The translations under genes and the position numbers were made by a program. 64,000 nt of DNA, from NCBI RefSeq assembly GCF_900111935.1, contig NZ_FOYN01000003.1, forward strand, positions 62,001 to 126,000, read 5' to 3'. Of the stretch, positions 6,234 to 51,400 are shown in pieces; within the stretch, counting starts at the first letter, position 1, and each line of letters opens with the position of its first letter. The DNA is from Halorubrum sodomense. GTDB taxonomy: Archaea; Halobacteriota; Halobacteria; Halobacteriales; Haloferacaceae. Under the pieces are notes generated by a model. It was not told the origin of the DNA. It saw only the letters and a list, made by a program, of their open reading frames with translations, and did not search any database.

Positions 6234-6407
6234 TGGGGCCGGAGGGATTTGAACCCCCGATCGACTGATATCTCCGGTGCGCCTCGGAACTCCAGAGGGT
6301 CGTCAACACGACCGATGATCAGTCGGCCGCTCGGTATATCAGTCTGGAGTGTCGTCCCGGGCGTAGCCTCTGGAGTCAGTCGCCATGCCTGGCTTGGCCA
6401 CAGCCCC
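6234..6407 (-). tRNA. trnW: tRNA-Trp (anticodon CCA) with 100-nt intron
   Basis: Reading the minus strand from 6407: the acceptor arm GGGGCTG pairs with CGGCCCC ending at 6235, with discriminator A at 6234. No CCA is encoded. The 5' exon (6370-6407) contains the D arm and ends CTCCAG, which carries anticodon CCA. The 3' exon (6234-6269) starts ATCAGTC and includes the T arm GGGGGTTCAAATCCCTC. Joining the exons gives a 5-bp anticodon stem ACTGA/TCAGT and a 7-nt loop CTCCAGA. In the precursor, CTCCAGAGG pairs with CCTCTGGAG in the intron, as expected for a bulge-helix-bulge splice site. Splice sites are inferred from this folding and could be off by a base. Spliced length is 74 nt. Confidence 0.95.
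6270..6369 (-). ncRNA. tRNA-Trp intron with two box C/D-type guide modules
   Basis: Two modules of the form GACGA-guide-CCGA can be read in the minus strand. Module 1 has guide sequence at plus 6335-6344 and box D-like CCGA at 6331-6334; the guide pairs with the 3' exon, and the fifth nucleotide upstream of CCGA faces U39. Module 2 has guide at 6288-6296 and CCGA at 6284-6287; it pairs with ACTCCAGA of the 5' exon, and the fifth nucleotide faces C34. In Haloferax the tRNA-Trp intron is known to guide 2'-O-methylation of C34 and U39 by the fibrillarin RNP. The same N+5 geometry is directly readable here. Boxes are noncanonical (GACGA, CCGA). Confidence 0.88.
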
Positions 6408-8434: not shown

Positions 8435-9922
8435 ATGGCGACAGATTCTGGCCGATTCTCGACGAAGCTCGAGGTTCCGGAAGCGCTGACGTTCGACGAC
8501 GTGCTCCTCCGCCCGAAGGAGAGCCGAGTCGAGCCCGACGACGCGGACCTGAGCACCCGGGTGTCGAACAACGTCGAACTCACCGTTCCCGTGCTGTCGG
8601 CGGCGATGGATACCGTTACCGAGAGCGATCTCGCCATCGCGATGGCCCGTGAGGGCGGTCTCGGGGTCCTCCACCGCAACATGACCGTCGAGGAGACGGC
8701 CGCCGAGGTCGAGCGCGTCAAGCGCGCTCACGAGCTCGTCATCCGCCGCGAGGATGTCGTCACCGTCTCGCCGGACGACACCGTCCGCGAGGCCGACGCC
8801 GTGATGGAGCGGCAGGGCGTCTCCGGCGCCCCCGTGGTCGCCGACGACGACACCGTCCTCGGGATCATCTCCGGGACGGACATCCGACCCTACCTCGAGG
8901 TCGGCGAGGACGACGCCGTCCGCGAGGCGATGACCGACGAGGTCATCACGGCCCCGGAGGACGTCGACGCGCGCGCGGCACTGGAGCTGATGTACGAGCA
9001 CAAGATCGAGCGCGTCCCGATCGTCGACGACGCCGAGGGGCTGGTCGGACTCGTCACGATGCAGGGCATCCTCCAGCGTCGCGAACACGAGGAGGCCGCC
9101 CGCGACGAGGACGGGCGGCTCCTGGCCGGCGTCGCGGTCGGTCCGTTCGAGGAGGAGCGCGCCGTCGCGGCCGACGAGGCGGATGTCGACGTCATCTTCA
9201 TCGACTGCGCGCACGCGCACAACCTCAACGTCTTAGACTCGGCGGAGGCGATCAAGGGGACCGTCGACGCCGACGTCGTCGTCGGAAACGTCGGGACGCG
9301 CGAGGCCGCCGAGGCCGCGGTCGGCTTCGCCGACGGACTCAAGGTTGGAATCGGTCCCGGGTCGATCTGTACCACGCGCGTCGTCAGCGGCGCGGGGATG
9401 CCGCAGATGACCGCGGTCGCGGAGGTCGCGGACGTCGCCGCCGAACACGACGTCCCCGTGATCGCCGACGGCGGGATCCGCTACTCCGGCGACGCGATCA
9501 AGGCGCTCGCTGCGGGCGCGAACGCGGTGATGCTCGGCTCGTACTTCGCCGGAACCGACGAAGCGCCGGGGCGCGTCATCACGATGAACGGGAAGAAGTA
9601 CAAGCAGTACCGCGGGATGGGCTCGGTCGGCGCGATGAAGTCCGGCGGCGGCGACCGCTACCTCAAAGAGGAGGAGGAAGACGAGGAGTTCGTCCCCGAG
9701 GGCGTCGAGGCGGCGACCCCGTACAAGGGGAGCCTCGCCTCGGAGCTCCACCAGCTCACGGGCGGGATGCGTTCCGGGATGGGGTACGTCGGCGCGGAGA
9801 CCGTCCTCGACCTCCACGAGCGCGCGGAGTTCGTCCGCGTCTCCGCCGCGGGACAGAGCGAGAGCCACCCGCACGACGTGATGATCACCGACGAGGCGCC
9901 GAACTACAGCCCGGACGAGTGA
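8435..9922 (+). CDS. guaB: IMP dehydrogenase
   Basis: Catalyses NAD-dependent oxidation of IMP to XMP, the committed step of GMP synthesis. 495 residues, normal for the family. The TIM barrel begins [13 protein letters not shown] (about residues 18-30) and [13 protein letters not shown], is interrupted by two CBS domains (about 105-220), then resumes with the catalytic loop [15 protein letters not shown], where Cys312 is the nucleophile. [12 protein letters not shown] and [12 protein letters not shown] bind phosphate, and [10 protein letters not shown] precedes the flap. The ATG at 8435 is chosen because a CTTTTCA box lies about 27 nt upstream; an in-frame ATG at 8390 would overlap that promoter. 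Confidence 0.97.
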
Positions 9923-19098: not shown

Positions 19099-19143
19099 CC
19101 GCCCTCTCTCGATCCGTTCTCCCCGCGAGCGCCTCGCCCCCCG

Positions 19144-19848
19144 TCAGGCGCGCCTGATCCGGTCCGCGGTAACCGCGAGCGGCTCGGCGTAGTGGAGCAG
19201 CGGCTCGCCGTCGGGCCGATCGAAGCCGTTCGCCGCGAACAGCGTGTTCGCCCGGATCTCCGCCTCGGCCGGGCGCAGCGTCCACCGCTCGTGGTCGATC
19301 TCGCCGACGTACAGCCGTCCCTCCGAGCCGGCGGTGTAAAACCGGTAGTTCTCCAGCAGGAACGCCGGCAGCGACCCCGTCTCGGGCGTGAACGCCTCAC
19401 CGGCCGGCCCGTATGTCGCGTCGAACCGCGCGTGCGGAGCGCCCTCGTGGACGCGACGGCTCGCGAATCGGACGGCGTCGAACCCGCCGTCGGTGGCGGT
19501 GAGCCGGACGTCGGTCTCGGCGCGGTAGTACGGGAGGCGGAACAGCCCGCGGGCGACGGCGACGCCGATCCGGTCGTCGGCGTCGAGGCTGTGGAAGTAG
19601 ACGCCCGGCCCGTCCGGCCCCTCGACGTAGGTCCGGAGGTTGAGTTCGGGGAACGACAGCCCAATCGGGACCCCTCGCGGGCGGACGTCGTCCATCACGA
19701 ACGAGACGACCCCGAGGTAGGCGTCGCCGTCGTGGGTCGCGACCGACAGCCCGTCGGGCAGCGCCGCGGCGACGCTCGACGGGTCGACGGGCCAGTGCGC
19801 GAACAGACCGTCGCGCCACGTCATCTCCAGCCAGCGGCGACCGAGCAT
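19144..19848 (-). CDS. YqjF-like protein (DUF2071)
   Basis: 234 residues, start MLGRRWLEMTWRDGLFAHWPVD. Typical DUF2071 features: LFAHWPVDPSSVAAALPDGL, YLGVVSFVMDDVRPRG, ELNLRTYVEGPDGPGVYFHSLDADD, and GLFRLPYYRAE. Members form a beta-barrel resembling the acetoacetate decarboxylase fold, but activity is not established. No signal or membrane segment. It converges on gdh with a 45-nt gap. Confidence 0.88.
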   Translation of the reverse strand: MLGRRWLEMTWRDGLFAHWPVDPSSVAAALPDGLSVATHDGDAYLGVVSFVMDDVRPRGVPIGLSFPELNLRTYVEGPDGPGVYFHSLDADDRIGVAVARGLFRLPYYRAETDVRLTATDGGFDAVRFASRRVHEGAPHARFDATYGPAGEAFTPETGSLPAFLLENYRFYTAGSEGRLYVGEIDHERWTLRPAEAEIRANTLFAANGFDRPDGEPLLHYAEPLAVTADRIRRA

Positions 19849-35564: not shown

Positions 35565-35832
35565 CGCTTATAAATGATAAACTGGTGACCGGCGGTGAAC
35601 ACCTCCAAAGCCCCACCCGCACAGCACCGCGACCGCACCTCACGCCTCCCCAGCCTCGTCGGTCGGTCTCCCCTTCGCTCCGACCGGCCCACTCCCTCGC
35701 GCGGTGCTGTCGCCGGCGCTTCGCGCCGGCTTCCAGAGGGACCTCCGGTCCCTCGCGGCTCGGCCGCGAGGCGGCCTCGCAGGTACGCGCCACCGCACCT
35801 TCTTTTATAACTGATCGTCGCTGTCCGCAGTC
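35565..35832. repeat. Hairpin-rich dispersed repeat element, copy A
   Basis: An intergenic element between convergent genes. The left end has TTATAAAT (35568-35575), then 32 nt from TATAA to ACCTCCAAAG (35601-35610) and AGCCCC. The core carries perfect stems: 7-bp arms at 35660-35666/35680-35686, and 8-bp stems with 3-nt loops at 35712-35730, 35736-35754 and 35752-35770. The right end has TTTTATAA (35803-35810), i.e. a minus-strand TATA pointing inward. No credible ORF. Left box, core phrases (CCTCCCCAGCCTCGTCGG, ACTCCCTCGCGCG) and right end (ACGCGCCACCGC) all recur in copy B at 50826-51336. Unknown function; ncRNA, MITE-like or terminator roles are possible. Confidence 0.8.
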
Positions 35833-50825: not shown

Positions 50826-51336
50826 ACTGTTTATAAGTGATTGATGGATCGACAACGGACACCGCCAAAGCCCCAGCCGCTCGCCTATAAATAACTGACA
50901 GTAGATCGGCGGAGAGTACCTCCAAAGCCTCAACGGCTTATTTATAAATAGCTACCAGCAGATCGGTGGCGAGTACCTCCAAAGCCCCAGCCGCGAGGCG
51001 GGCGCAGGCGACGCAGGCACCGCAGGGAGGGAGCGGTAGCGACCGAGTGAGGAGCGTGGTTCGAGAGAGCAAAGCTCTCTCGTCATCACGAGACGCCTTC
51101 GGCGTCTCGAACGACAGCGAGCGTGCGCCCGCCTCGCGGCTGCCCCTCTGAGTCCCACCCGACCGCACAGCACCGCAGCCTCATCCCTCCCCAACCTCGT
51201 CGGGCGCGTCCTTCGGGCTCCCTTCGGTCGCCCTCGTCGCGCCCGACTCCCTCGCGCGTGCGGTTCGCGCCGCGGTGCGGCGCTCACCGGCACGCGCCAC
51301 CGCCTTCATTTATAAGCACTCGTCGCCGCCACTTGC
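50826..51336. repeat. Hairpin-rich dispersed repeat element, copy B
   Basis: A longer copy of the element at 35565-35832, again between convergent genes. Left end: three tandem 57-bp units, each with a TATA-like box (50830-50836, 50885-50893, 50941-50950) and an ACCNCCAAAG box at 50861, 50918 and 50975. A 19-bp perfect inverted repeat (50988-51006/51124-51142) encloses stems at 51062-51082 and 51089-51109 (9 bp, 3-nt loops); copy A lacks this part. Then shared core phrases, a 10-bp stem (51199-51208/51238-51247), an 8-bp stem (51254-51261/51290-51297) enclosing a 7-bp one (51267-51283), and the right end with minus-strand TATA (51308-51315). No plausible protein. Confidence 0.85.
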
Positions 51337-51400
51337 GGGTATTTAAATATTGTATCGCAACTGACGCTCTTACCACTCGCTCCGCTGTCGACACCGCCGA

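What the first reader, a model, noticed from the sequence alone, without database searches (positions are those of the whole stretch)
35565..35832. Undescribed hairpin-rich repeat element, copy A, between convergent genes
Seen: inward-pointing TATA-like boxes at both ends (TTATAAAT at 35568; minus-strand TTATAAAA at 35803-35810), an ACCTCCAAAG box 32 nt from the left TATAA, and four perfect stems in the core, three of them 8 bp with 3-nt loops (35712-35730, 35736-35754, 35752-35770). It shares left box, core phrases and right terminus with a second locus at 50826-51336. Both loci lie between the 3' ends of convergent genes. Neither codes for a credible protein, and no transposase or tRNA is adjacent. 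Inference: a dispersed regulatory/ncRNA or MITE-like family. ACCTCC equals the anti-Shine-Dalgarno motif at the 16S rRNA 3' end, so a transcript starting near it could mimic that tail; this is speculative.
Basis: partly seen in the sequence, partly recalled or inferred. Interest (0 to 1): 0.68.

Follow-up and report, generated by a model that had tools for sequence, protein, structure and literature searches.

The report
Haloarchaeal multi-copy folded RNA-like repeat
The two odd hairpin-rich spacers are members of an undescribed repeat family with about 94 copies in this salt-loving archaeon and relatives in most haloarchaeal genomes sampled; its folded shape is strongly conserved although the sequence changes, which points to an unrecognised structured RNA (or folded DNA strand) that spreads and is kept across a whole class of archaea.

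Summary
Copies A and B belong to a family of about 94 copies in this 3.03-Mb Halorubrum-like genome and occur in all 47 same-genus genomes tested. The deepest-conserved part is a ~125-nt hairpin module (P1), which copy A has lost. It is found in 123 of 146 genomes (50 of 58 genera) of the class. Across about ten families 22 of its 27 pairs show two-sided compensatory changes (covariation score 0.659 against 0.19 shuffled and at most 0.12 slid). Rfam has no match, and no open-access paper searched holds its sequences.

ACCTCC itself is not conserved. Copies are strictly intergenic, only mildly enriched between convergent genes, partly present/absent between species, and homogenised within a genome. 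No IS200/RAYT-type transposase exists in this genome and tnpB genes are not linked.

Most likely: a mobile-like multi-copy structured noncoding RNA family. The RNA step is inferred; a folded-ssDNA mobile repeat is the main rival.

The parts
35568..35575 (.). Copy A left AT box TTATAAAT, part of the single 57-bp left unit
   Evidence: TATA-like box in 128/244 last units vs 3/675 background
35601..35619 (+). Copy A left box ACCTCCAAAGCCCCACCCG (3' end of the minus-strand module: GGGGCTTTGGAGGT)
   Evidence: AAAGCCCC nearly invariant
35638..35662 (-). Copy A core CCTCACGCCTCCCCAGCCTCGTCGG (minus: CCGACGAGGCTGGGGAGGCGTGAGG), unpaired and most conserved; the P1 hairpin module expected between left box and core is missing
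   Evidence: LB-core distance 37 vs ~140
35660..35686 (-). Copy A variable hairpin after the core (CGGTCGG / CCGACCG)
   Evidence: same position pairs with different sequence in other copies
35621..35710 (-). Copy A long-range stem ACAGCACCGCG (35621-35631) / CGCGGTGCTGT (35700-35710)
   Evidence: 100% complementary, 11 nt
35712..35771 (-). Copy A inserted perfect hairpins (35712-35730, 35736-35754, 35751-35771), a module also seen in other copies (L026, L029)
35784..35795 (-). Copy A right end TACGCGCCACCG (minus: CGGTGGCGCGTA), proposed 5' region of the minus-strand RNA
35803..35810 (-). Copy A right TATA box, minus strand TTATAAAA, proposed promoter of the minus-strand RNA
   Evidence: TTATAA/TTTAAA within 30 bp of the right end in 106/209 copies vs 3/578 background, spacing mostly 7-10
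50830..50993 (.). Copy B array of three 57-bp left units (AT boxes near 50830, 50886, 50941; left boxes 50861-50879, 50918-50936, 50975-50993)
50988..51142 (+). Copy B P1 hairpin module (arms 50988-51009 / 51121-51142) with nested hairpins; inverted relative to 207 of 212 scored copies
51179..51203 (-). Copy B core CCTCATCCCTCCCCAACCTCGTCGG
51254..51302 (-). Copy B right hairpin and right end CACGCGCCACCG
51309..51316 (-). Copy B right TATA box TTTATAAG
51340..51349 (-). Copy B second AT box TATTTAAATA; a box at 38-43 bp is present in about 19% of copies
19103..19156 (.). Empty site: 54-bp spacer where the syntenic genome G038 carries a complete element (G038:C1:2090505-2090879)

Best explanation
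The finding is a (partly deleted) copy of a class-wide haloarchaeal family of dispersed, non-coding, structured elements whose working form is the folded minus strand of the window. Shown: family size, distribution, covariation, intergenic-only placement, presence/absence between species, within-genome homogenisation. Inferred: transcription starts at the right-hand TATA box, running leftwards, and gives a ~250-300-nt RNA: 5' right hairpin, GAGGGA, a variable hairpin, unpaired GGCUGGGGAGG core, then the P1 domain (GAAAGGGGC/GGGGCUUUC closing stem, long stem, inner helix of 2-bp steps alternating with tandem G-A mismatches), ending near GGGGCUUU. The RNA most likely binds a conserved protein partner through the core and the G-A helix. 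The element spreads as a non-autonomous repeat, and copies exchange sequence by gene conversion, so sites persist while contents change. Halorubrum added tandem 57-bp TATA units at the 3' side.
For: Copy number about 94 (86 R1 hits). 47/47 congeners, 123/146 class genomes. Covariation 22/27 pairs, score 0.659 vs 0.192 shuffled and 0.05-0.12 slid. Minus strand folds better (RNAalifold -174.6 vs -148.7). Strand asymmetry: in three helices over all copies 111 cells are G-U on the minus strand vs 50 on the plus strand; in A2 about 49 G-U vs 12 A-C cells (my count from the pair table). Right TATA in 106/209 copies vs 3/578 background. Core and right hairpin also present in other families. A ~550-nt conserved noncoding stretch in mobile islands ends with the same P1 domain next to an SSB/RPA-like gene. 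Site retention with content exchange: 4/4 testable sites shared with G038 although paralogues are more alike than orthologues. 0 of 93 copies overlap genes.
Against: No transcription data were available. Sheared G-A and G-T pairs also favour one strand of ssDNA, so RNA is not proved. P1 is inverted in 5 of 212 copies, including copy B, and lost in copy A, so not every copy can be functional. Copy number ranges from none detected to about 100 among genomes, more like a mobile repeat than an essential RNA. Strand-bias cells are not independent (paralogues), and in A2 one pair gives 16 of the 49 G-U cells. The left AT units are as TATA-like as the right ones.
Confidence: 0.5

Rival explanations
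1. A folded-ssDNA mobile repeat (REPIN/MITE-like): the hairpin strand is recognised as single-stranded DNA by an enzyme acting in trans, and any transcript is incidental.
For: Variable copy number, empty site at window 19103-19156, intergenic-only placement, inverted 5'-to-5' doublets in other genera (12 PM vs 1 MP, none in the same orientation), rare P1 inversions. Strand-specific pairing is also expected for ssDNA hairpins.
Against: No Y1/IS200/RAYT transposase in this genome with 94 copies (control rings in 5 genomes); tnpB genes not adjacent. No target duplication could be seen. A conserved unpaired core and positioned TATA boxes are not needed for it. Sites are mostly retained between species.
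Confidence: 0.35
2. DNA-level or RNA-level terminator/insulator between genes (bidirectional terminator, nucleoid or supercoiling site).
For: Strong GC hairpins followed by T-rich stretches; intergenic; mild convergent enrichment 31% vs 20%.
Against: 46 copies between co-directional and 18 between divergent genes. A terminator needs neither a conserved 25-nt unpaired core nor a class-wide sequence-specific fold.
Confidence: 0.1
3. Anti-Shine-Dalgarno mimic RNA transcribed rightwards from the left TATA units.
For: Tandem TATA units point at ACCTCC with promoter-like spacing.
Against: ACCTCC present in only 120/244 last units, absent in other families; strand evidence points the other way.
Confidence: 0.03

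Closest known systems
REP/REPIN elements (bacterial repetitive extragenic palindromes mobilised by RAYTs; PMC3116915, PMC3733652)
   Same: High copy, intergenic, hairpin-forming, inverted doublets in several haloarchaeal genera
   Different: Unit ~125-300 nt rather than 20-40 bp; no GTAG/CGTC tag noticed; no Y1/RAYT gene in the genome; conserved unpaired core and TATA boxes
PATEs and small mobile repeats (SMR) of Haloquadratum walsbyi (PMC3119063)
   Same: Haloarchaeal, noncoding, multi-copy, palindromic; SMR-A are ~110 bp with inverted ends, no target duplication, up to 54 copies, mobilisation unexplained
   Different: PATEs are tied to IS605 ends, ours are not near tnpB; SMR-A insert into PATE/IS605 palindromes, ours lie in chromosomal spacers.
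Halovirus HF2 class I intergenic repeats (56-58-bp promoters; PMC8707807)
   Same: ~57-bp repeated unit with a TATA box in a halophilic archaeal system
   Different: Viral, single units driving genes; the quoted beta motif fragment (TCTTTAAGTC) differs; our units are tandem and attached to a structured element; no match in the phage collection
sotRNA/IS1341 (tnpB)-overlapping ncRNAs (Gomes-Filho 2015, cited in PMC10544981)
   Same: Haloarchaeal ncRNA connected with mobile repeats
   Different: No tnpB next to our copies
Rfam structured RNA families
   Same: Deeply covarying structure
   Different: No match at gathering or relaxed threshold

Membership tests
REP/REPIN | 20-40-bp palindrome with a GTAG or CGTC tag | tested here: not met
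   P1 is ~110-135 nt with GAAAGCCCC/GGGGCTTTC ends
REP/REPIN | RAYT/Y1 transposase in the genome | tested here: not met
   PF01797: 0 matches in own genome, control rings in 5 of 14 genomes
REP/REPIN | Inverted doublets | tested here: inconclusive
   12 5'-to-5' doublets in other genera; typical Halorubrum copies carry a single P1
MITE | Terminal inverted repeats shared with a resident transposon | not tested
   The two ends have similar inward TATA/GGTG layouts, but no transposon with these ends was looked for by terminal sequence
MITE | Target-site duplication and empty sites | tested here: inconclusive
   Empty site at 19103-19156, but flanking spacers are too diverged to see a duplication
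PATE / IS605 | Association with tnpA/tnpB ends | tested here: not met
   8 tnpB genes in own genome, none next to a copy
SMR-A | ~110-bp repeat inserted in PATE/IS605 palindromes | not testable with these tools
   SMR sequences are in supplementary files that could not be opened
Rfam families | Covariance-model match | tested here: not met
Structured ncRNA gene family | Covarying structure | tested here: met
Structured ncRNA gene family | Strand-specific pairing (G-U over A-C) | tested here: met
   (minus strand); related sequences and paralogues, so indicative
Structured ncRNA gene family | Discrete transcript | not testable with these tools
   No RNA-seq data available

The most novel reading that the evidence does not exclude
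A new structured noncoding RNA family of the class Halobacteria: dozens to about 100 dispersed ~300-nt loci per Halorubrum genome, sharing its 3' domain with a ~550-nt structured RNA encoded next to an SSB/RPA-like gene on haloarchaeal mobile islands, so that a plasmid/island RNA and a chromosomal repeat family are two branches of one RNA system with a shared protein partner.
Probability: 0.35. Interest if true: 0.87.

Novelty: new variant of a known kind. Interest (0 to 1): 0.72.

Why it matters
It would be one of the most abundant structured noncoding elements in archaea, about 1% of a Halorubrum chromosome (inference from ~94 copies of 300-400 bp), unseen by Rfam and by the papers searched. 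Genetically tractable haloarchaea would allow direct tests of what a multi-copy archaeal structured RNA or hairpin repeat does, how it spreads without an IS200-type enzyme, and whether the conserved island RNA beside the SSB-like gene uses the same partner.

Tried and rejected
Rfam scans in gathering and relaxed mode: no family. IS605/PATE origin: tnpB not adjacent. REPIN origin: no Y1 transposase. Viral origin: 5 IMG/VR contigs with the left box, no phage record, 4 plasmid records. Anti-SD mimic: box not conserved. Convergent-gene rule: not a rule. Junctions and target duplications from between-species comparison: spacers too diverged. SSB-like island protein as the trans-acting partner of the chromosomal copies: absent from this genome at E<=1e-10, so not required for their persistence. 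Literature by sequence strings and topic: no description found, though subscription papers are not in the library.

Full report
CHECK OF THE OBSERVATION. A blastn of copy A against the window's own assembly returned about 40 further places, copy B added more, and the left box alone gives 109 matches at up to three mismatches against none for the reversed control. After fetching about 85 stretches I counted 94 cores. All 47 same-genus genomes match; named records are nearly all Halorubrum, plus Halobellus.

ANATOMY. In window orientation a standard copy has: 1-4 tandem 57-bp units (47 of 62 spacings are exactly 57) with a TATA-like box and the box ACCTCCAAAGCCCCAGCCG; a hairpin module P1 of about 125 bp; a short linker; the core CCTCACNCCTCCCCAGCCTCGTCGG; a variable hairpin; a right hairpin; the end CACGCGCCACCG; and a TATA box 7-10 bp further on. 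Copy B has three left units and an inverted P1; only 5 of 212 scored copies are inverted.

STRUCTURE. In 34 own-genome copies RNAalifold finds 46 pairs, 26 with two-sided compensatory changes. The inner helix of P1 alternates two Watson-Crick pairs with tandem pyrimidine mismatches on the plus strand, which are tandem G-A on the minus strand. P1 also exists in other families of the order. A 45-sequence alignment over about ten families has 94.2% of cells paired, 22 of 27 pairs changed on both sides, and a covariation score of 0.659 against 0.192 for shuffles and at most 0.116 for slid structures. This rules out a chance fold.

WHICH STRAND. Energies favour the minus strand. Over all copies, cells departing by one transition are G-U on the minus strand 111 times and G-U on the plus strand 50 times in three helices; in the cross-family alignment my count from the table is about 49 to 12, though one pair supplies 16. 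These cells are related by descent, so I call the strand likely, not proved. The right TATA box, which would start a minus-strand transcript, is in 106 of 209 copies against 3 of 578 background stretches. In one family two copies diverge from a shared AT-rich block at this end (loci L269, L291, L297), as expected for a promoter end.

DISTRIBUTION AND DYNAMICS. Ten of 29 P1 loci outside Halorubrum also have the core at the right place, with a right hairpin where read; an eleventh automatic hit is off position. So the full architecture is older than the genus, while the tandem 57-bp units were seen only in Halorubrum. Copies never overlap predicted genes; contexts are 46 tandem, 29 convergent, 18 divergent against 207/70/65 for element-free neighbours (Fisher p=0.036 for convergent). 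Against the syntenic genome G038, all four own copies with both flanks found are occupied there too, while window 19103-19156 is an empty site for a G038 copy. Copies at shared sites are less alike than paralogues within the genome, so contents are exchanged, probably by gene conversion (inference).

ORIGIN AND MOBILITY. No Y1 transposase is found in the genome, tnpB genes are not neighbours, phage records lack it, and plasmid and viral records rarely have it. In other genera P1 modules form inverted 5'-to-5' pairs (12 of 13 adjacent pairs), REPIN-like in layout. How copies spread is unknown.

ISLAND RELATIVE. Low-copy genomes revealed a divergent P1 at the 3' end of a strongly conserved ~550-nt noncoding stretch, divergent to a gene for an SSB/RPA-like OB-fold protein (NCBIfam PRK07217, E about 1e-17) in islands that share several genes; conservation stops at GGGCTTTC. 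It has no Rfam match. Its RNAalifold structure shows 113 G-U vs 12 A-C cells, a number biased upward because the structure was fitted to that strand.

MECHANISM. Shown: a class-wide, covarying, dispersed, intergenic, partly mobile family with content exchange. Inferred: minus-strand transcription, an RNA as the working form, a protein partner. I rate RNA as the working form at about one half and a folded-ssDNA repeat at about one third. The anti-Shine-Dalgarno idea is not supported, because ACCTCC occurs in only half of the last units and not in other families.

KNOWN OR NEW. It resembles REPINs, PATEs and SMRs in behaviour but fails defining tests of REPIN and PATE; SMR-A could not be compared by sequence. 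I found no published description in the library, with the caveat that subscription papers are missing.

Noticed in passing
L363 about 8460-9110 (+ strand RNA), also L357-L362, L369-L371, L373 (partial), L375: Strongly conserved ~550-nt noncoding stretch on haloarchaeal mobile islands, divergent to an SSB/RPA-like OB-fold gene, ending with a P1-like domain; looks like an undescribed large structured RNA.
   Followed up: partly
L350, L354 and L357, L358: An aRF-1 (archaeal release factor) paralogue is encoded beside this island RNA in two genomes.
   Followed up: no
own genome C7:96802-97401 and C7:194868-195467: Two sodA genes, 95% identical, each followed by a copy of the repeat.
   Followed up: partly
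window 50988-51142; L149, L155, L163, L208: The P1 module is inverted between its own arms in 5 of 212 copies, suggesting recombination across the stem.
   Followed up: partly
L017, L018, L027, L028, L036, window 51056-51115: Short perfect hairpins with 3-nt loops are nested at fixed points inside P1, with different stem sequences in different copies.
   Followed up: no
L272, L288, L289, L296, L315 and others: P1 modules in inverted 5'-to-5' pairs with 28-59 bp between them in other haloarchaeal genera.
   Followed up: partly
window 6234-6407 (-): tRNA match spanning 174 bases for a 71-position model, so it probably contains an intron.
   Followed up: no
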